Shown here: positions 3,755-36,725 of the stretch, in pieces
Position numbering within the stretch: the first letter of the stretch is position 1
Layout: each line of letters opens with the position of its first letter
Origin: Phascolarctobacterium sp.
GTDB lineage: Bacteria; Bacillota; Negativicutes; Acidaminococcales; Acidaminococcaceae
Direction: 5' to 3'
Length of the DNA: 62,453 bases
Assembly (NCBI GenBank): GCA_017457085.1
Contig: JAFTID010000007.1
Span: 1-62,453 of the forward strand
The notes under the pieces: generated by a model
Database searches by the model: none
Told to the model about the DNA's origin: nothing
Seen by the model: only the letters and a program-made list of their open reading frames with translations
Made by a program: the position numbers and the translations under genes

Positions 3755-4576
3755 ATGCCGGAAATGCCAGAAGTGGAGCAGGTGAGAAAAACTCTTGCAC
3801 CACGTATTACAAATAAAAAAATCACTTCCGTAGAAGTGTATCTGGATAGATTGGTTAAGCACCCCACCGTGGAAAAGTTCATTGAGGGCTTAACAGGTAA
3901 AACAATTTTAGAAGTTGGTCGCAAGGGAAAGTACCTTGTACTGCATACTGCGCCTAACCAAAAATTAATCGTGCATTTGCGTATGACTGGTGCGCTTATT
4001 GCTCAAGACAGTGAGCAGGAAGCACCACCCTACGCTAAAATAAAATTTACTTTGACCGATGGGGTGACCATGTGGTTTACGGATATCCGTACCTTTGGCA
4101 CCTTGTACCTCGTAACTGATGATGATGCTTACATAGATGGTTACGAAACCTTGGGACCAGAGCCTTTGAGCGCAGGTTTTACTGCGGAATATTTGGTTCC
4201 ACTGGCGAAAAAGGCACGTAAGCCCATTAAGACTTTTATCTTAGACCAAAAGGTAATTGCTGGATTGGGGAATATTTACGCTGATGAATGCTTGGCACTT
4301 AGTGGCATTAACCCTTTACGCCACGCTAACACTTTGAGTGATGAGGAGATTAAGGCTTTGCACGAAGCAGCTAACGCTGTAATCGCCCAAGGCATTAAAA
4401 ATCGTGGCACTACCTTCCGTGATTATAAGGATGGCGAAGGTAAAAGTGGTGAGAACCAAAAATATTTGCTGGTATATGGACGTGGGGGCAAGCCTTGCAC
4501 CAAATGTGGCGAGCCTTTGGCTACTGCCAAGGTTGGCGGCAGAGGAACCGTTTATTGCCAGCATTGTCAAAAATAG
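3755..4576 (+). CDS. mutM: Formamidopyrimidine-DNA glycosylase (Fpg/MutM)
   Basis: 273 residues, the usual family length. It starts MPEMPEVEQVRKTL: after Met removal the catalytic Pro and Glu (normally PELPEVE) lie at the N-terminus, with Met replacing the common Leu. The conserved helix-two-turn-helix region and the C-terminal zinc finger are complete (CTKCGEP at about 247, CQHC at about 268). The enzyme excises 8-oxoguanine and formamidopyrimidines and nicks the abasic site. A strong AGGAGGT site precedes the ATG, 9 bp after polA; this polA-mutM-coaE order is common in Firmicutes. Confidence 0.96.
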   Translation: MPEMPEVEQVRKTLAPRITNKKITSVEVYLDRLVKHPTVEKFIEGLTGKTILEVGRKGKYLVLHTAPNQKLIVHLRMTGALIAQDSEQEAPPYAKIKFTLTDGVTMWFTDIRTFGTLYLVTDDDAYIDGYETLGPEPLSAGFTAEYLVPLAKKARKPIKTFILDQKVIAGLGNIYADECLALSGINPLRHANTLSDEEIKALHEAANAVIAQGIKNRGTTFRDYKDGEGKSGENQKYLLVYGRGGKPCTKCGEPLATAKVGGRGTVYCQHCQK

Positions 4577-27757: not shown

Positions 27758-30301
27758 ATGAATGAAAACTTTTCTGAATCTGTAAAAAGTATTCTCGAAG
27801 CAGCTCAACAACAAGCTGTAATGAATTATCATCAAGAATTAACCACTGCCCACGTAGTAGCAGCCTTGTGCGGCAGCGAAGGCTTCTTTAAATTTTTACT
27901 GCAAACCTTGCACGTAAACGCAGATGCTTTCACCGCAGATGCCAAAGCTTTGGTGCAAAAAATCCCTGGAGTGAAAGGTCAAGACCGTCAGCTGATGATG
28001 GGTACTGCCTTCGCTCGCGTAATGGCAATGCTAGCGCAAAGCGGTAAAAGTGAAATCACCATTGGCGATTTGGTAGCAACCATTGTCAGCGATGGTGACA
28101 GCGACGTAGTTTCTCTGTTTAAAAAATATGGCATTGATAAAAAGAAAGTTGAGGCAGCCTACATGCAATATCAAAACAGCGCAGGCGACGAAGAAAACAA
28201 AAAGACTCTGGAAAAATTTGGTCAAGATTTGACTGCTAAAGCTCGCGAAGGCAAGCTGGACCCGGTTATTGGTCGTGATGAAGAAATCCGTCGCGTTATC
28301 GAAATCTTGAGTCGCCGTAAAAAGAATAATCCTGTACTCATCGGTGAACCGGGCGTAGGTAAAACTGCCATTGCTGAAGGCTTGGCTAGACGTATCGTAG
28401 CAGGTGATGTTCCTGAAAATTTGAAGAACAAAACCTTGTATGCTTTGGATTTGGCTTCACTTGTTGCCGGTGCTAAGTTCCGCGGTGAGTTTGAAGAACG
28501 CCTGAAAAAAGTTCTCAAGGCAATTACCGACAGTGCTGGTCAAATCATTATGTTCATTGACGAATTGCACACTGTTGTTGGTGCTGGCGCTGCCGAAGGC
28601 TCTATGGATGCAGGCAATATTTTGAAACCTATGCTTGCCCGTGGCGAGCTCCGTTGTATTGGCGCAACTACCTTGAACGAATACCGTAAATATATTGAAA
28701 AAGATAGTGCTCTTGAACGTCGCTTCCAACCTGTTATGGTAAAACAACCTGGCGTTGAAGATACCATTTCTATTTTGCGTGGCTTGCGTGAACGCTACGA
28801 AGTACATCATGGCGTACGCATTAAGGATGCGGCTTTGGTAGCAGCGGCTGTGCTTTCCAATCGCTACATTAATGACCGCTTCTTACCTGACAAAGCCATC
28901 GACCTGGTGGACGAAGCTGCAGCAAGACTCCGTACTGAAATTGACAGCTTACCTGCAGAGCTTGACGAAAGCAAACGCAGAATTTTGCAACTGGAAATTG
29001 AAGCACAAGCTTTGAGTAAGGAAGAAGACGAACAATCTAAAGCACGCCTTGCGAAAATTGAAGAAGAGCTTGCTAAATTGCGTAAGGCTAATGACGAACT
29101 GGTAGCACGTTGGGACGGAGAGAAGGCTTCCATCGCCCGTGTGCGTGAAGTGAAAAAAGAAATTGATGCTGTTAAGCAAGAAATGGAGCAAGCTGAACGC
29201 GATTACAATTTGAACAAGCTTGCAGAATTGAAATACGGACGCTTGCCTGAACTGCAAAAAGAATTGGCAGACCTTTCCGTTAAAGACGAAAAAGGTAACG
29301 ACCACGTTCTGCTGAAAGAAGAAGTTGACGAAGAAGACATTGCCAAAGTTGTTAGCACTTGGACTGGTATTCCTGTAGCACGACTTGGCAGTGGCGAACG
29401 TGAAAAACTGGTACACTTGGAAGAAATCCTCCATCAACGGGTTGTTGGTCAAGACGAAGCAGTGAAAGCGGTAAGCGAAGCAGTTGTTCGTGCCCGCGCT
29501 GGTATTAAAGACCCCAATCGTCCTATTGGCAGCTTCATCTTCCTTGGACCTACCGGTGTAGGTAAAACTGAATTGGCAAAAACCTTGGCAGAAGTACTCT
29601 TTGACGATGAACGCAACATGGTGCGCATCGACATGAGCGAATACATGGAGAAACATACTGTGTCCCGTTTGATTGGCGCGCCTCCGGGTTACGTTGGTTA
29701 TGATGAAGGCGGTCAACTGACGGAAGCAGTACGCCGCCATCCTTACAGTGTAATTCTTTTGGACGAAATCGAAAAAGCACACGCAGATGTGTTCAACGTG
29801 TTGCTCCAAGTGCTTGACGACGGTCGCTTAACTGACGGTCAAGGTAGAAGTGTTGACTTCAAAAACACTCTTATCATTATGACCAGTAACCTTGGCAGTG
29901 CAGAGATTATGCGTAAACAAGGCAAGATTGACCGCGACGACGTACAACAAATGTTGATGAACTTCTTCCGTCCGGAATTCCTTAACCGTGTGGACGATAT
30001 TGTTGTTTTCAAACCCTTGCAAGCAGAACAAATCAAAGACATTGTTAAACTTGTTCTCAAAGAATTGGCAGAACGTCTTGCAAAACAACTGGAGATTAAA
30101 CTGGAAGCAAGCGACGAAGCAATCGCTCACCTTGCAAGCGCAGGTTTTGACCCCGCTTTTGGTGCACGTCCCTTGAAACGATTGATTGTGCATACTGTAG
30201 AAAACTTGCTGGCTCGTAAAATTGTGGCTGGCGAAATTAAAAATGGCGACACCGCAGAAGTAATCATGAATGGTGAAAATGTAGACGTAGTCGTAAAATA
30301 A
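27758..30301 (+). CDS. clpB: ATP-dependent disaggregase ClpB
   Basis: 847 residues: N domain (1 to about 145), AAA-1 with Walker [16 protein letters not shown] and pore loop [14 protein letters not shown], a coiled-coil M domain (about 400-530), AAA-2 with [18 protein letters not shown] and [20 protein letters not shown], then a D2 small domain. It has a ClpB-type long M domain and no ClpP-binding IGF loop that I can see. It rescues aggregated proteins with DnaK. ATG 27758 follows AAAGAGGT. No CIRCE or CtsR box is visible upstream; repeat copy H occupies the gap instead. Confidence 0.96.
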
Positions 30302-30319
30302 AAACTTAAAAATAGCATT

Positions 30320-30358
30320 AAATCCCGAAATCGGATAAGTCCGGTTTCGGGATTTTTC
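30320..30358 (+). terminator. Terminator after clpB
   Basis: AAATCCCGAAATCGG and CCGGTTTCGGGATTT around ATAAGT, then TTCATTTT. Confidence 0.92.
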
Positions 30359-30365
30359 ATTTTAG

Positions 30366-30778
<413 letters not shown>

Positions 30779-30794
30779 AGAAAAGTGTACCTTT

Positions 30795-30823
30795 TTGTAC
30801 AATAACTTTAGCTGAAGTATAAC
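30795..30823 (+). promoter_or_regulatory. Promoter of the autotransporter gene
   Basis: TTGTAC (30795-30800), 17-bp spacer, TATAAC (30818-30823), about 180 bp before the start; implies a long AT-rich leader. Confidence 0.45.
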
Positions 30824-31005
30824 ACAGATTTATCATAATTTGTTACATTTCCAATAAATAAATTAAATATAAGTGTAATGAGAAAATTAGTGTTCAAAAT
30901 GGTACAAATTATTGTAAAAGGTTTATAAACGAGCTTCCTTTTCTTTTAAAAACAGAAAGGTTTTAAAAAGCTTTGCTCTTAAAATTTTAGAAAGAGGTGT
31001 TATGT

Positions 31006-33261
31006 ATGAGCAAAAAGATTCTGAAAAGAAGTTTGGCACTTGGTGCGTTGATGGCGTTCGTGATTACTGGGAATGCTTGGGCGGAAGAGAATTATAGTTA
31101 TGGCATTGAAAGTGAGAAGAAAGATTGTTTAGCGTTAGGTGCGGTTGCTAACAATAGTTCGGAGTATAATAATTTTAAATCTGGTTATGCGTACGATAAT
31201 ATTTCCATCGCTGTAAAACAAGGTGGTGAGGATTATGGTGTGAGCATGTATAATGATAAAGAGTATGTTTTAAAGGCTACTAAAAGTATAACTATTAGTT
31301 CGTATGATAGTGGTATTTCAGCACAAAACATTTCTTATGCAGTAAATAGTAGGCTTGATGTAAGCGCACCTGTAATAGCTATTCAAGATGTTAGTCAGGA
31401 TAATAGGTCTGGTATTCATTTAGATGCTATCGGTTCTAAAGTTTATGTTAAAGATTTTAATAGTTTTTCTATAAATACCAATGGTAAAAATTCTTACGGA
31501 ATAAGGGTTAACCAAGATGGTGCACTGGTTCATGCTATTGCTAATCCTGAAATTTCAAATAGTACTATTTCAATAAATTCAGGTTCAAGTGGCGTTGTTA
31601 CGACAGCTGATGGGGGAATCGAACTTACTGCTGATTATATCAATATAACTAGTGATGGAGGCAATAATAATGACTCTTATAAAGGGCAGGCTGTTGCTAG
31701 TAAAAAAGGTAGAATAGATATTTTGGCTACCAAGAAAATAATTATTACAAACACTAATAAAGGAAATGACACTGAGTATATAGGTCACGCAGTACATTCT
31801 GAAAATGGGACAATAAATATTGGTACTGCTAAAGATGATAGTGGAAAAGATTCGAAGGGAAAAGCTGATGTGATCATTAATGGTGATGTTAAGGCAAAAA
31901 ATACTGGTGTAATTAATTTGAATTTGGAAACAGCAGCATCTTCTTTGAATGGTTTGATTTTGGATAGTAATTTGTCTAAAGATAAAGATTATGGAACTAG
32001 TCTTTTATTGAGTAGTGGAGCTAAGTGGAATAACTCTGGTGTAAGTAGTGTTACCGCACTTACTTTAGATGGTGGTATTGTTAAACAAACTGATAGTAAT
32101 GGAACTGTTAATGTTGGTACTCTATCTGGTAAAGGTACTTTTGAAGTTGCAGATGGTGCTTCTGGTCAAATGATTATTAAAACTAAAGATGATGAGTCTG
32201 AACTTAGAGTTTCAACCACTAATAAAAATATAAGTTTGGCAGATTTAACTGATGTTGCGGTGATGTCTACATCTACAAATGATAAATTGGTTGTAGCTGC
32301 TGATTTTGTTGAAAAAACTGGCGGCAGTGTTTATGAAAAAGAAAGTGCAGCATTAAATACTGATGGTTCTCTTGGAAAAGTTGATAAAGTTGTTGATGCT
32401 GGCAATATTTCTGCAAATAATATGGCTGCTGTAGGCTTGATGAGCTGGCGTGCAGAAATGAATGATATGAATAAACGTATGGGTGAACTCCGTAATGCTA
32501 ACGGTGAACACGGTGTATGGGTTCGTATGGTTCGTGGCGAAAGTGAATACAACAGCGTTAAAAACCAATATAACCAATATCAATTAGGTTATGATGAAAA
32601 ACTCAGCGTTGATAAACGTTGGACTGTAGGTGCTGCAATTAGTTACACTGATGCAGAAAACAATTTTGCACAAGGTAATGGCGAAAGCACTAACAAAGCA
32701 TTGTCCATCTATGGTAGCAAATTGAATGCTGACGGAACTTTTGTTGACTTGATTGCTAAATATGCTCGTCTTGAAAACGAATTTGATATCGTTAGCGGTA
32801 TGGGCGATGCTGAATATGATGTAAACGGTTATAGCTTCAGTGCAGAATTTGGCAAACGTATCCAACAAGGTAATGGTTTGTGGATTGAACCGCAAGTAGA
32901 ATTGACCTACGGTAAAGTTGGCAACGCTGATTATGTAACTGCAAAAGGTGTTAAAGTAGCACAAGATAGCATGGAATCCTTGGTTGGTCGTGTAGGTTTC
33001 TCCTTGGGCAAAGACATTAAAGACGGCAACGTATATGCACGTGCTTCTTATCTCTATGACTTCGAAGGTGAAACTCAAGCAACCTTGAACAATGATGCTG
33101 TTCTGAAACAAGACCTTGGTGGCGGCTGGTGGGAAGTTGGCGTTGGCGCTAACATTAACTTGTCCAAAGCAACCTATGTTTATGCTGATGTTGAAAAGAC
33201 TTTTGGTGGCGAAGTAGACACTAATTGGCAATGGAACCTGGGCGTAAGATACAGCTTCTAA
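31006..33261 (+). CDS. Autotransporter (type V secretion) with outer-membrane beta-barrel
   Basis: 751 residues. Signal peptide KKILKRSLALGALMAFVITG then NAWA cleavage; passenger from about 27 to 480, rich in Asn/Ser/Asp/Val beta-helix strands; then a linker and a C-terminal barrel (about 490-751) starting near GVWVRMVRGESEY and ending WNLGVRYSF, with the terminal Phe recognised by the BAM complex. The passenger would be exposed on the outer membrane surface, as adhesin or similar. This gene is the best evidence that the cell is diderm. ATG 31006 follows AAGAGGTG. Passenger codons are much more AT-rich than the barrel's. Confidence 0.93.
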   Translation: MSKKILKRSLALGALMAFVITGNAWAEENYSYGIESEKKDCLALGAVANNSSEYNNFKSGYAYDNISIAVKQGGEDYGVSMYNDKEYVLKATKSITISSYDSGISAQNISYAVNSRLDVSAPVIAIQDVSQDNRSGIHLDAIGSKVYVKDFNSFSINTNGKNSYGIRVNQDGALVHAIANPEISNSTISINSGSSGVVTTADGGIELTADYINITSDGGNNNDSYKGQAVASKKGRIDILATKKIIITNTNKGNDTEYIGHAVHSENGTINIGTAKDDSGKDSKGKADVIINGDVKAKNTGVINLNLETAASSLNGLILDSNLSKDKDYGTSLLLSSGAKWNNSGVSSVTALTLDGGIVKQTDSNGTVNVGTLSGKGTFEVADGASGQMIIKTKDDESELRVSTTNKNISLADLTDVAVMSTSTNDKLVVAADFVEKTGGSVYEKESAALNTDGSLGKVDKVVDAGNISANNMAAVGLMSWRAEMNDMNKRMGELRNANGEHGVWVRMVRGESEYNSVKNQYNQYQLGYDEKLSVDKRWTVGAAISYTDAENNFAQGNGESTNKALSIYGSKLNADGTFVDLIAKYARLENEFDIVSGMGDAEYDVNGYSFSAEFGKRIQQGNGLWIEPQVELTYGKVGNADYVTAKGVKVAQDSMESLVGRVGFSLGKDIKDGNVYARASYLYDFEGETQATLNNDAVLKQDLGGGWWEVGVGANINLSKATYVYADVEKTFGGEVDTNWQWNLGVRYSF

Positions 33262-33306
33262 TAATTTAGCTTGCCTTTCCTCTTAGGAGGAATGCTTCTT
33301 TTCAAC

Positions 33307-33339
33307 TGTTGCCTCCTATCACGCCTTCGGGGGGCAACA
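33307..33339 (+). terminator. Hairpin after the autotransporter gene
   Basis: TGTTGCCTCC and GGGGGGCAACA pair around a loop; no U-run follows directly, so it may stabilise the mRNA 3' end rather than terminate. The hairpin at 33351 is the better terminator. Confidence 0.5.
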
Positions 33340-33350
33340 ACTTAAAAAAC

Positions 33351-33395
33351 AAACAGGATTTAACTTACCTTAACGGTTCGTTAAATCCTGTTTTG
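33351..33395 (+). repeat. Duplicated terminator hairpin around the RelA/SpoT cassette, copy 1
   Basis: AACAGGATTTAAC and GTTAAATCCTGTT with TTTTGTGTTTT after. Apart from one base in the loop the same hairpin recurs in direct orientation at 34316-34360, enclosing the two genes between. Confidence 0.9.
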
Positions 33396-33473
33396 TGTTT
33401 TATTTACTTCCTTTTCGTTGACGTAGAAATATAAAAATAATAAAATGTAATTGCAAAGGGAGGAGGCGTTCTT

Positions 33474-34064
33474 ATGGATTTGTTTTTACCTGAGGATGTA
33501 TTAGCAAAAATTTCATATACATCTAGATTTACACAGAGTTTGAAGACAATCTCTTTACGTAAAACTCCTCTTGAAGATATTTTAAAAGATATTGAGAGTT
33601 ATCGTGCTTTGTATTCGTCGGAGATAGTACGACAAGAAAATGTCATTGGCTCTAGATTTAAAAGTGTTGACTCTATTTTAAGGAAGTATGAAAAGACTTT
33701 AAAGACTGGCGGCGGATTTAAGCAATGTTTTAATGATGTGCTCGGTTTTCGCTTACACTTTGCAGAATATCCGACGGAGTTTCCTGATTATTTTCGTGTG
33801 GTTGACTTGAGAAATGGTAAGCAAATTGACGATGGGTATAGAGCTATACATTTGTATTATCAACGTGATAATCATTCTTATCCTATAGAAGTACAGCTTT
33901 GGTGCGGTGAAGATTATAAGTTTAATATTTGGAGCCATAAATTGGTTTATAAATATTTAGAACCACAATTAGGGAATTCGTTGTATCAAGAGTATAGACA
34001 AGGTAAAATTTTGACTGAAGAAGATTTCAAGAATAAACTGCTTGAATTAAAAGGAAGTGAGTAA
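33474..34064 (+). CDS. RelA/SpoT-domain small alarmone synthetase-like protein (toxSAS candidate)
   Basis: 196 residues, a single synthetase domain. FKQCFNDVLGFRLHF is the conserved core strand with Arg; QIDDGYRAIHLYYQRD is the GYR.IHL loop; YPIEVQLWCGEDYKFNIWSH is the catalytic Glu strand (E.Q) and W..H helix. No hydrolase, TGS or ACT domain is present. By family it transfers pyrophosphate from ATP to a nucleotide or, in toxSAS enzymes, to tRNA CCA ends. A strong GGGAGGAGG precedes the ATG. It is followed at once by a small gene, the layout of toxSAS toxin-antitoxin pairs. A housekeeping SAS of RelP/RelQ type is the alternative. Confidence 0.8.
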   Translation: MDLFLPEDVLAKISYTSRFTQSLKTISLRKTPLEDILKDIESYRALYSSEIVRQENVIGSRFKSVDSILRKYEKTLKTGGGFKQCFNDVLGFRLHFAEYPTEFPDYFRVVDLRNGKQIDDGYRAIHLYYQRDNHSYPIEVQLWCGEDYKFNIWSHKLVYKYLEPQLGNSLYQEYRQGKILTEEDFKNKLLELKGSE

Positions 34065-34065
34065 T

Positions 34066-34311
34066 ATGGGTAACAAGAAAATTTACATCGTAGCAAAGGT
34101 TTTTGATAAGCAAGGTTGTTATGCTTACCAATGTAAGGAGCCTAAAGAATTGCAGTACGTTCCTGAAACCTTGGAGCTTTTGCGGAATAAAGATGTTCAG
34201 ATAGTTATTTTAGATGACCCGGAAATTTATTCTGAATACGCTCCGTATAATTTTATTCCGAAGTTACAAGACTTCGTAGAAAAAGTTATAGCTTTAAATA
34301 AAGTAGCATAA
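34066..34311 (+). CDS. Small partner protein of the RelA/SpoT-like enzyme (antitoxin candidate)
   Basis: 81 residues, MGNKKIYIVAKVFDKQGCYA.., with KDVQIVILDDPEIYSEYAPY. No membrane helix; an alpha/beta fold is likely. It starts 1 bp after the synthetase stop, with GGAAGTGAG as ribosome binding site inside the end of that gene; the in-frame GTG 34057 overlaps it. Position, size and pairing suggest an antitoxin or regulator of the alarmone synthetase. I cannot name the family with certainty. Confidence 0.6.
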   Translation: MGNKKIYIVAKVFDKQGCYAYQCKEPKELQYVPETLELLRNKDVQIVILDDPEIYSEYAPYNFIPKLQDFVEKVIALNKVA

Positions 34312-34315
34312 CCAA

Positions 34316-34362
34316 AAACAGGATTTAACTTACCTCAACGGTTCGTTAAATCCTGTTTTGTT
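34316..34362 (+). repeat. Duplicated terminator hairpin around the RelA/SpoT cassette, copy 2
   Basis: Same hairpin as 33351-33395 (one loop base differs), directly after the second gene and followed by TTTTGTTGTTT. Confidence 0.9.
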
Positions 34363-34620
34363 GTTTATTCTAGAAAAATTCCGAAATGGGAAACTTTTTC
34401 TGAAAATGGGCAAGAAGTTTCCGAAATGGGAAACTCTTTTTCAAATTAGGAGAGAGCTTTTAAAAATGAAATGCTTTGTTAGAATTTGGGAAGAAGCTGC
34501 CAAATTTTTATGCAAAAGATTTTTGAAATAAATCGCCCGAAAATTTTTAGAAGCTGTCGATTTCGTTAGCACCCTTGCGAACAATAAAATTTTGAAAAGA
34601 TTTCAAAGTTCACAATCAAT
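34363..34620 (+). other. Intergenic region with repeated hairpin and no convincing gene
   Basis: CCGAAATGGGAAACT occurs twice (about 34390 and 34423); the second forms AGTTTCC/GGGAAACT and is followed by CTTTTTC, a weak terminator. A 21-codon cationic ORF (34466-34531) has AGGAG too far upstream to be convincing. Nothing else recognised. Confidence 0.5.
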
Positions 34621-34649
34621 TTGACACGTTGATGTGTGCTTGGTAAAAT
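34621..34649 (+). promoter_or_regulatory. Promoter of the purine operon
   Basis: TTGACA (34621-34626), 17-bp spacer, TAAAAT (34644-34649), about 115 bp before purE. Confidence 0.75.
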
Positions 34650-34657
34650 TATAATGT

Positions 34658-34768
34658 ATGAGATTACACCGAAGCCCGAGAAAGATTTTAGGTACTGCAT
34701 TTAAGTCAATAAATTTTACTTGGGTTTTGTTTTTTACTTGGACAAAATATTCGGGAGGTTATTTATGA
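34658..34768 (+). promoter_or_regulatory. purE leader: possible attenuator hairpin and leader ORF
   Basis: AAGCCCGAG (34672-34680) can pair with CTTGGGTTT (34719-34727, two G-U) and is followed by TGTTTTTT, like an intrinsic terminator within the leader. A 36-codon ORF starting at 34658, a few bases from the expected transcript start, ends with TGA overlapping the purE ATG, which would couple translation. No guanine, PRPP or ZTP riboswitch consensus is recognisable. Confidence 0.35.
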
Positions 34769-35259
34769 AAGTTGCTATCATTATGGGCAGTAATTCTGAT
34801 TGGCCCATCTTAGAACCTGCGGAAAAAACCTTGCTTGGTTTTGGCGTGGAAGTAGAAGTTGTTGTTGCTTCTGCTCATCGCACTCCGGACATTGTACATG
34901 AATTTGCGGCAACTGCTCGTGAACGTGGCGTTGAAGTTATTATTGCTGCGGCTGGTGCAGCTGCTCACTTAGGTGGCGTTATTGCTGCTTATACTACTGT
35001 ACCTGTAATTGGTATTCCCATTAATGCAACTCCGCTTAATGGTATGGATGCACTTTTGAGCTTCGTGCAAATGCCGGCAGGTATTCCTGTGGCAACCATG
35101 GCAATTAACGGTGCGAAGAACGCAGCACTTTTTGCTGTACAAATTTTGGCAACTAAATATCCTGAATTAGTTGATAGATTAGCGGCTGACCGTATTAAAA
35201 TGCAGGAAGAAGTTAAAGCTAAAGGCGAAAAACTTGCTGCAATGCGCCAAGGTCAATAA
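34765..35259 (+). CDS. purE: N5-carboxyaminoimidazole ribonucleotide mutase
   Basis: 164 residues. [31 protein letters not shown] and [17 protein letters not shown] are the PurE substrate-binding loops; [20 protein letters not shown] is typical of class I. It converts N5-CAIR to CAIR. ATG 34765 has GGGAGG upstream. No purK lies beside it, so N5-CAIR synthesis or a class II-like CO2 reaction is encoded elsewhere. First gene of the purine cluster. Confidence 0.95.
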
Positions 35260-35288
35260 CCACACATATTAGAAAGAGGGGAATTGTT

Positions 35289-36725
35289 GTGGAGAAATTT
35301 TTTGAAGATGACAAACTGCACGAGGAGTGCGGCGTGTTCGGTATTTACAGCCATAATGATGACGTAGCGTTGAATACTTACTGGGGACTTTTTGCTTTGC
35401 AGCATCGCGGTCAAGAAAGCTGCGGTATTGCTGTTGCAGATGGTCAACATATGAAAATTAAAAAAGGCATGGGCCTTCTGACTGACGTATTTAAAGATGG
35501 CGTTGGTGAAATGCCTGGTCATGTTGCAATTGGTCACGTGCGTTATTCTACTACCGGTTTTAACATGGCTTTCAATACCCAGCCTTTAAAAGTATTTTTT
35601 GACGGCGGTCATTTGGCATTGAGCCACAACGGCAGCATTACCAATGCGGGCGCACTGCGTAAGGAACTTGCTGCTGAAGGTGCAATTTTCCAAACCACCG
35701 TTGATACTGAAGTAGTTTTGAGCATGCTGGCTCGTAGCCGTAAGGATGCAGTTGAAGATCGTTTTGCTGAAGCATTGAACAGACTTAAAGGTGCTTTTGC
35801 AATCCTCATTATGACTAAAGATAAAATTATTGCTGCTCGTGACCGTTTTGGCTTCCGTCCCTTGTGTCTTGGCAAATTGGAAAACGGTGGCTGGTGCGTT
35901 GCTTCTGAATCCTGCGCTTTCGACCTTGTAGGTGCGGAGTTAGTGCGCGACGTTAAGCCTGGTGAAATGATTATCATCGACAGTGATGCTACTGAACCTC
36001 GTAGCATGATGTGGGCCGATACCATTCCTGAACATAGAGCCCATTGCATTTTTGAATACGTATATTTTGCACGTAATGATAGCAAAATTGATAATCAAGA
36101 TGTTTACGAAGCACGTCTCCAATTAGGTCGTGAGCTGGCAAAAGAAACTAGAGACTTGAAGCCTGACGTAATCATTTCTGCTCCGGACAGTGGTACTCCG
36201 GCGGCAATTGGTTATTCCTTAGAATCCGGCGTTCCTTTTATGGAAGGCTTGACTAAAAATCGTTATGTTGGTCGTACCTTTATCCAACCTACCCAAAAGC
36301 AACGTTTGGATGCGGTACGCTTGAAATTAAATCCGGTGCGTAGCGTTGTTGCTGGCAAATCCGTTGTCATTGTAGACGATTCTATCGTTCGTGGCACTAC
36401 CAGTGGTAAGGTAATCAAACTGCTGAAGGATGCAGGTGCACGTGAAGTTCACGTTTGCATTTCTTCTCCTCCGGTAACTGATTCCTGCTACTATGGCATT
36501 GATACTGCAGAACGCAAGGATTTGATTGCAACCCGTTGCACCATTGAAGAAATCTGCCGCTTTATCGGTGCAGATAGTCTTCACTACGTTTCCATGGAAG
36601 GCATGAAACGTGCCATCAGTTCCATTAATCCTGATGATTTGTGCTGCGCTTGCTTTAGCGCAGGTTATCCTGATAATGCTGACGAAGTAGTTAAAGTAGA
36701 ACCTAAATCTCTCGCAAGAAAATAG
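35289..36725 (+). CDS. purF: Amidophosphoribosyltransferase
   Basis: 478 residues. After a short propeptide, EECGVFGIYSHNDD gives the N-terminal nucleophile Cys of the glutaminase domain once processed, followed by LQHRGQESCG and HVRYSTTG. The PRPP-binding loop SVVIVDDSIVRGTTSGK lies in the C-terminal domain. It makes phosphoribosylamine, the first committed purine step. The start is GTG 35289 with AGAGGGG upstream. Cys residues in the tail (CYYGID, LCCACFSAGYP) suggest a Bacillus-type Fe-S form. Confidence 0.96.
   Translation: MEKFFEDDKLHEECGVFGIYSHNDDVALNTYWGLFALQHRGQESCGIAVADGQHMKIKKGMGLLTDVFKDGVGEMPGHVAIGHVRYSTTGFNMAFNTQPLKVFFDGGHLALSHNGSITNAGALRKELAAEGAIFQTTVDTEVVLSMLARSRKDAVEDRFAEALNRLKGAFAILIMTKDKIIAARDRFGFRPLCLGKLENGGWCVASESCAFDLVGAELVRDVKPGEMIIIDSDATEPRSMMWADTIPEHRAHCIFEYVYFARNDSKIDNQDVYEARLQLGRELAKETRDLKPDVIISAPDSGTPAAIGYSLESGVPFMEGLTKNRYVGRTFIQPTQKQRLDAVRLKLNPVRSVVAGKSVVIVDDSIVRGTTSGKVIKLLKDAGAREVHVCISSPPVTDSCYYGIDTAERKDLIATRCTIEEICRFIGADSLHYVSMEGMKRAISSINPDDLCCACFSAGYPDNADEVVKVEPKSLARK

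What the first reader, a model, noticed from the sequence alone, without database searches (positions are those of the whole stretch)
33351..34362. RelA/SpoT-like toxSAS candidate plus small partner, enclosed by near-identical hairpins
A single-domain alarmone synthetase (GYRAIHL, EVQLW) is followed after 1 bp by an 81-residue gene, as in toxSAS-antitoxin pairs. The pair lies exactly between two direct copies of a 44-bp hairpin that differ by one base. The near identity implies recent duplication with the insertion, or gene conversion between the copies. The partner family is not one I can name, so this may be a new toxSAS class.
Basis: partly seen in the sequence, partly recalled or inferred. 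Interest (0 to 1): 0.78.

Follow-up and report, generated by a model that had tools for sequence, protein, structure and literature searches.

The report
FaRel2 toxin–antitoxin in hairpin-bounded slot
The two genes are a known kind of bacterial poison and antidote pair (FaRel2 and ATfaRel2); they sit between two almost identical DNA hairpins in a chromosomal slot where a related species carries a different poison–antidote pair, so the genes are ordinary but the hairpin-bounded slot for swapping defence genes may not be.

Summary
In detail: a synthetase at 33474–34064, an 81-residue partner one base later (34066–34311), and two direct 44-nt hairpins (33351–33394, 34316–34359) differing by one base. 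The 'new toxSAS class' reading fails. The synthetase matches crystallised FaRel2 (E 5e-29) with nearly all listed active-site residues; the partner matches ATfaRel2 (E 9e-11) and keeps its YXXY motif. Clostridioides plasmids carry the same pair. The novelty lies in the hairpins. In a congener the same clpB–purE site holds an unrelated RelB/YafQ pair between the same hairpins and behind a homologous leader. The same hairpin arms recur at one other site per genome (aroQ–amidohydrolase), next to TA, Schlafen-AlbA and type I restriction modules. A 1.26-Mb sample not chosen for cargo held one further near-identical hairpin pair, of different sequence; it flanks AbiEi/AbiEii. Outgroup genera have these sites empty, with unrelated terminators. 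Best reading: terminator-like hairpins bound swappable TA/defence modules, most like Neisseria minimal mobile elements. No integron integrase was found. Insulation by the hairpins is likely; how the hairpin comes to be duplicated is unproven.

The parts
33351..33394 (+). left hairpin copy, 44 nt, terminator-like
   Evidence: same hairpin at the same site in G001
33418..33446 (+). promoter-like site TTGACG-17-TAAAAT of the TA operon
   Evidence: 10 of 12 consensus bases; leader homologous to that of the unrelated TA in G001 (z 6.7)
33474..34064 (+). FaRel2-family toxSAS toxin, 196 aa, stop included
   Evidence: phmmer to 8pu4 E 5.2e-29; active-site residues kept; Pfam RelA_SpoT just below cut-off
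34066..34311 (+). ATfaRel2-family antitoxin (DUF6718), 81 aa, stop included
   Evidence: Pfam PF20476 88.3 bits; 8pu1 E 8.8e-11 with YXXY kept
34316..34359 (+). right hairpin copy, 44 nt, one base different from the left
   Evidence: right arm kept in G002 and decayed in G003
27758..30301 (+). clpB, conserved left neighbour of the variable slot
   Evidence: sequence; direct neighbour of purE in G003 and in outgroup genomes
34765..35259 (+). purE, conserved right neighbour of the slot
   Evidence: 95-97% identical in congeners

Best explanation
A FaRel2-ATfaRel2 type II toxin-antitoxin module occupies an exchangeable chromosomal slot (clpB...purE) in a Phascolarctobacterium-like genome. Inferred from family: the toxin moves pyrophosphate from ATP to the 3'-CCA end of tRNA and stops translation; the antitoxin's YXXY helix plugs the ATP site. 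Shown by comparison: two near-identical hairpins bound the module; a congener carries an unrelated TA at the same spot between the same hairpins and behind a homologous leader; the same hairpin arms adjoin TA and defence modules at one second site in all four congeners. Inferred: the hairpins are bidirectional terminators that insulate each module, and modules enter or are swapped by recombination at or near the hairpins, which leaves or homogenises a copy at each end. The TA may be held in the slot by addiction, because deletion between the direct repeats would remove both genes and leave toxin without fresh antitoxin.
For: FaRel2 and ATfaRel2 matches. Same gene pair on Clostridioides plasmids. 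RelB/YafQ pair in the same hairpins in G001 with homologous leader. Second site with the same arms in all four congeners and defence/TA cargo. Arms at two loci only in this genus, unrelated terminators in outgroups, so the arms were copied between loci. A pair of another sequence found in sampled stretches flanks AbiEi/AbiEii. Only the hairpin repeats; left flanks are unrelated in six of seven pairs. Strong folding.
Against: No complete single-hairpin empty site of this sequence. Within-genome loop similarity is only marginally above permuted labels (5%). Similar pairs in other genera flank non-defence genes (G014, G058). The hairpins did not pass the simple terminator scan. No recombinase acting on hairpins was identified. 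Toxicity and tRNA activity untested. One genome per species, all drafts.
Confidence: 0.62

Rival explanations
1. Plain minimal-mobile-element exchange: modules are swapped by homologous recombination in the conserved flanking genes, and the hairpins are only terminators kept alike by gene conversion or selection.
For: Conserved flanking genes with different cassettes per species. Hairpin-leader homology between G000 and G001 suggests the edges stayed while genes changed. AAACAGG...CCTGTTT terminators are common in the family.
Against: The full arms are shared between two unlinked loci but not with outgroups, which exchange in the flanks alone does not explain; only the hairpin repeats.
Confidence: 0.25
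2. Non-autonomous IS200/IS605-like element whose subterminal palindromes are the two hairpins, carrying the TA as cargo and moved by a transposase elsewhere.
For: Two near-identical imperfect palindromes in the same orientation at both ends; a pair exactly bounding an insert in other loci.
Against: In G003 two modules share one middle hairpin; hairpin sequence differs by locus; half hairpins remain at sites without a TA.
Confidence: 0.07
3. Integron-like cassette array, with hairpins as short attC sites.
For: ATTTAAC...GTTAAAT fits the RYYYAAC/GTTRRRY box pattern; G003 has modules in a row separated by hairpins.
Against: No integrase over the TIGR02249 cut-off in four genomes; modules in mixed orientation and of several genes; a promoter-like site inside the module; pairing runs beyond the boxes.
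Confidence: 0.03
4. Chance: an ordinary TA that happens to lie between two generic terminators.
For: Terminators of this general form are common in the family.
Against: The full-arm hairpin is confined to two sites; another TA lies between the same hairpins in G001; near-identical pairs are about one per megabase sampled.
Confidence: 0.03

Closest known systems
faRel2-aTfaRel2 of Coprobacillus sp. D7 (PMC11782079, PMC11559606; PDB 8pu1-8pu4)
   Same: Two-gene module; full-length similarity of both proteins; ATP-site residues, acceptor-site tyrosine and antitoxin YXXY motif kept
   Different: About 39% identity; R77 to K, R29 to T, antitoxin R47 to D; tRNA choice unknown; host in Negativicutes; module bounded by hairpins
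CapRel SJ46 (fused toxSAS with pseudo-zinc-finger antitoxin domain; described in PMC11782079)
   Same: toxSYNTH toxin blocked through a YXXY motif
   Different: Here toxin and antitoxin are separate proteins
Minimal mobile element of Neisseria (Saunders and Snyder 2002, as described in PMC3898611)
   Same: Different whole-gene cassettes between the same conserved genes in different lineages; often restriction-modification genes; no mobility gene needed
   Different: Each module is bounded by near-identical hairpins, and the hairpin arms are shared between two loci
Inverted DNA uptake sequences acting as terminators in Neisseria (PMC2397512)
   Same: Terminator-like palindromes tied to gene exchange
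   Different: Uptake sequences are abundant genome-wide; this hairpin is at two sites per genome
Integron cassette arrays
   Same: Modules in a row separated by palindromic sites (G003); R-box-like sequence
   Different: No integron integrase, mixed orientation, multi-gene modules

Membership tests
FaRel2 toxSAS | Full-length sequence relationship to FaRel2, single toxSYNTH domain | tested here: met
   phmmer to 8pu4, residues 7-189, E 5.2e-29; RelA_SpoT as only Pfam match
FaRel2 toxSAS | ATP-site residues R64, K66, S70, K74, R77, D90, R95, E145, Q147 and acceptor-site Y128 | tested here: met
   All kept except the conservative R77 to K (residues from PMC11782079)
FaRel2 toxSAS | tRNA-binding K28 and R29 | tested here: inconclusive
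   K28 kept, R29 aligns with T next to a gap
FaRel2 toxSAS | Toxic; pyrophosphorylates tRNA 3'-CCA | not testable with these tools
   needs expression and assay
ATfaRel2 antitoxin | Sequence family of ATfaRel2 (DUF6718) | tested here: met
   PF20476 88.3 bits, cut-off 27; 8pu1 E 8.8e-11
ATfaRel2 antitoxin | YXXY neutralising motif; Y57 and F59 of the secondary interface | tested here: met
   YSEYAPYNF aligns with YGEYEPYKF; R47 is D here
ATfaRel2 antitoxin | Encoded next to its toxin | tested here: met
   One-base gap here; overlapping genes in the same order on Clostridioides plasmids
Minimal mobile element | Different whole-gene cassettes between the same conserved genes in different lineages | tested here: met
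   purE site G000 against G001; aroQ site in four congeners
Minimal mobile element | Incorporated solely by homologous recombination | not testable with these tools
   needs strain series or experiment; a resolvase remnant lies upstream
Integron | Integron integrase gene | tested here: not met
   TIGR02249 over cut-off in 0 of 4 genomes (drafts)
Integron | attC sites with R and L boxes | tested here: inconclusive
   R-box-like ATTTAAC/GTTAAAT only, by reading the sequence; no L boxes recognised
IS200/IS605-type element with palindromic ends | Y1 transposase in the genome; each element with its own pair of ends | not tested
   Transposase not searched; one middle hairpin shared by two modules in G003 argues against

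The most novel reading that the evidence does not exclude
Near-identical terminator hairpins are the working recombination sites of a general system by which these bacteria load, stack and swap toxin-antitoxin and anti-phage modules between core genes, with hairpin sequences that differ by locus and lineage and no mobility gene inside the module.
Probability: 0.15. Interest if true: 0.8.

Novelty: new variant of a known kind. Interest (0 to 1): 0.5.

Why it matters
How defence modules without mobility genes of their own come to sit at fixed chromosomal spots is an open question. If near-identical hairpin pairs mark such modules, they give a cheap sequence signature for finding new defence and TA genes in Negativicutes, and a testable idea of how the modules move. 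The toxin–antitoxin pair by itself only widens the range of FaRel2.

Tried and rejected
New toxSAS class: rejected. Dispersed repeat or REP element: rejected, the whole hairpin is present twice in the genome and the arms at two sites per genome. Phage origin: no relative confirmed in viral contigs; phage hits cover at most 76% of the query at 28–37% identity in the rows shown. Known RNA family in 30000–36000: none. Integron: integrase not found. Loop-core pattern in the viral and genome collections: only the congener JAFTMR010000050.1. purE site in other genera: no pairs like these; unrelated pairs in G009 and a weak one in G050. Empty waaL/hydrogenase site for the AbiE pair: not found in the stretches held. 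The hairpin-pair finder is incomplete: it missed the G002 pair, so pair counts are lower bounds. Structure prediction was not run, since the match to a solved complex was decisive.

Full report
Check of the observation. Coordinates and features are right. The toxin ORF is 33474–34064, the partner 34066–34311, one base apart. The two 44-nt hairpins at 33351–33394 and 34316–34359 are direct copies with one T/C difference in the loop, both very stable. They are the only near-identical hairpin pair in the window and the only full copies in the genome.

The genes. The synthetase aligns over residues 7–189 with FaRel2 of PDB 8pu4 (E 5.2e-29), 70 of 181 aligned residues identical. The ATP-site residues listed in PMC11782079 (R64, K66, S70, K74, D90, R95, E145, Q147) and the acceptor-site Y128 are kept; R77 is K. 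The partner matches ATfaRel2 of 8pu1 (E 8.8e-11) and Pfam DUF6718 (88.3 bits, cut-off 27). It keeps the YXXY motif and the two aromatic residues of the secondary interface. Two Clostridioides plasmids carry a RelA/SpoT-like gene overlapping a DUF6718 gene in the same order. So the partner family has a name, a structure and a published mechanism: it blocks ATP entry to a toxin that pyrophosphorylates the tRNA 3'-CCA end (PMC11782079, PMC11559606). Toxicity was not tested here. FaRel2 is absent from the three congeners and, apart from one weak hit, from the other 55 family genomes searched, so it is an accessory gene.

The slot. In congener G001 (JAFTMR010000050.1, Phascolarctobacterium sp., roe deer caecum) the same position upstream of purE holds RelB and YafQ genes between two copies of the same hairpin. 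The genes are unrelated to FaRel2/ATfaRel2, but the leader between left hairpin and start codon is homologous (z 6.7, 0 of 2000 shuffles), with the same −35/−10-like region. G002 has a serine resolvase gene that ends in the right half of the hairpin; G003 has clpB next to purE with only a decayed right half. In several outgroup genomes clpB and purE are neighbours without insert or this hairpin.

A second site. The same hairpin arms occur at one further place in each congener, between aroQ and a convergent amidohydrolase gene. The cargo differs: a RelB/ParE-type TA in G000; a Schlafen-AlbA gene and type I restriction genes in G001 (split over two contigs); a Schlafen-AlbA gene between two hairpins in G002; in G003 a type I restriction system with a PDC-S56 gene, then a two-gene module without Pfam match (GNAT-like toxin with antitoxin by inference only), each set off by hairpins. 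Two outgroup genomes have a single, unrelated hairpin there. As the outgroup terminators at both sites are unrelated to this one, the arms shared by the two loci in this genus must have been copied rather than inherited in place. A second hairpin type, AAACAGGCTC…GAGCCTGTTT, bounds the right end in G000 and the left end in G001.

Background and generality. Terminators with outer arms AAACAGG…CCTGTTT are common in the family, so that part is shared style. Near-identical pairs are rare: 1,264,814 sampled bases with 514 hairpins gave one. That pair, found without regard to cargo, flanks AbiEi, AbiEii and an uncharacterised gene in G003 between convergent core genes, with a third hairpin sequence. 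In another genus (G014) an exact 34-nt pair, present only twice in that genome, flanks a LysR/DUF819/amidohydrolase insert at the aroQ site; G058 has a similar pair around a P-type ATPase. So in this genus every pair seen holds TA or defence genes, but elsewhere the cargo can be other accessory genes.

Mechanism. What repeats is the hairpin itself; left flanks are unrelated in six of seven pairs. Arms are invariant among the copies while the purE-side flank is 75–85% identical between congeners. This fits use of the hairpin as the joining point, or strong conversion between copies. Loop similarity within genomes is only marginally above permuted labels (5%), so recent duplication is not shown. 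Integron membership fails on the integrase and on mixed gene orientation, although ATTTAAC…GTTAAAT resembles the R boxes of attC. The closest known kind is the minimal mobile element of Neisseria (PMC3898611); the hairpin boundaries are the difference.

Limits. All congeners are draft assemblies, one per species; no strain series was available; the hairpin finder is not exhaustive; terminator function and recombination at hairpins are inferred.

Noticed in passing
window 30372-30766; L036 1727-1952; L037 (reverse strand); L194, L195, L197: Remnants of a small serine resolvase gene follow clpB in G000 and G001; intact relatives sit after proBA in G000 and G003. In G002 the proA-resolvase end is joined to the hairpin's right half next to purE, so a rearrangement breakpoint lies in the hairpin.
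   Followed up: partly
window 30997-33261 versus L036 2169-6900: The gene between clpB and the left hairpin is an autotransporter in G000 and a two-partner secretion pair in G001: the surface-protein part of the slot varies too.
   Followed up: partly
L247 9154-11902 (G003): Near-identical 32-nt hairpins flank AbiEi, AbiEii and an uncharacterised gene between convergent core genes.
   Followed up: partly
L187 431-4529 (G014): Identical 34-nt hairpins, only two in that genome, flank a LysR/DUF819/amidohydrolase insert next to aroQ.
   Followed up: partly
L078 5347-8112 (G003): A PDC-S56 candidate defence gene and an unknown gene lie inside the type I restriction operon.
   Followed up: no
window 34379-34458: Two tandem imperfect 40-nt repeats (TTCCGAAATGGGAAACT...) follow the right hairpin and are also seen in G001 and G002.
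   Followed up: no
L075 6283-6486 (minus strand) and L077 about 4094-4135: A small basic protein gene faces aroQ across the hairpin in G000; only its last codons seem to remain in G002.
   Followed up: no
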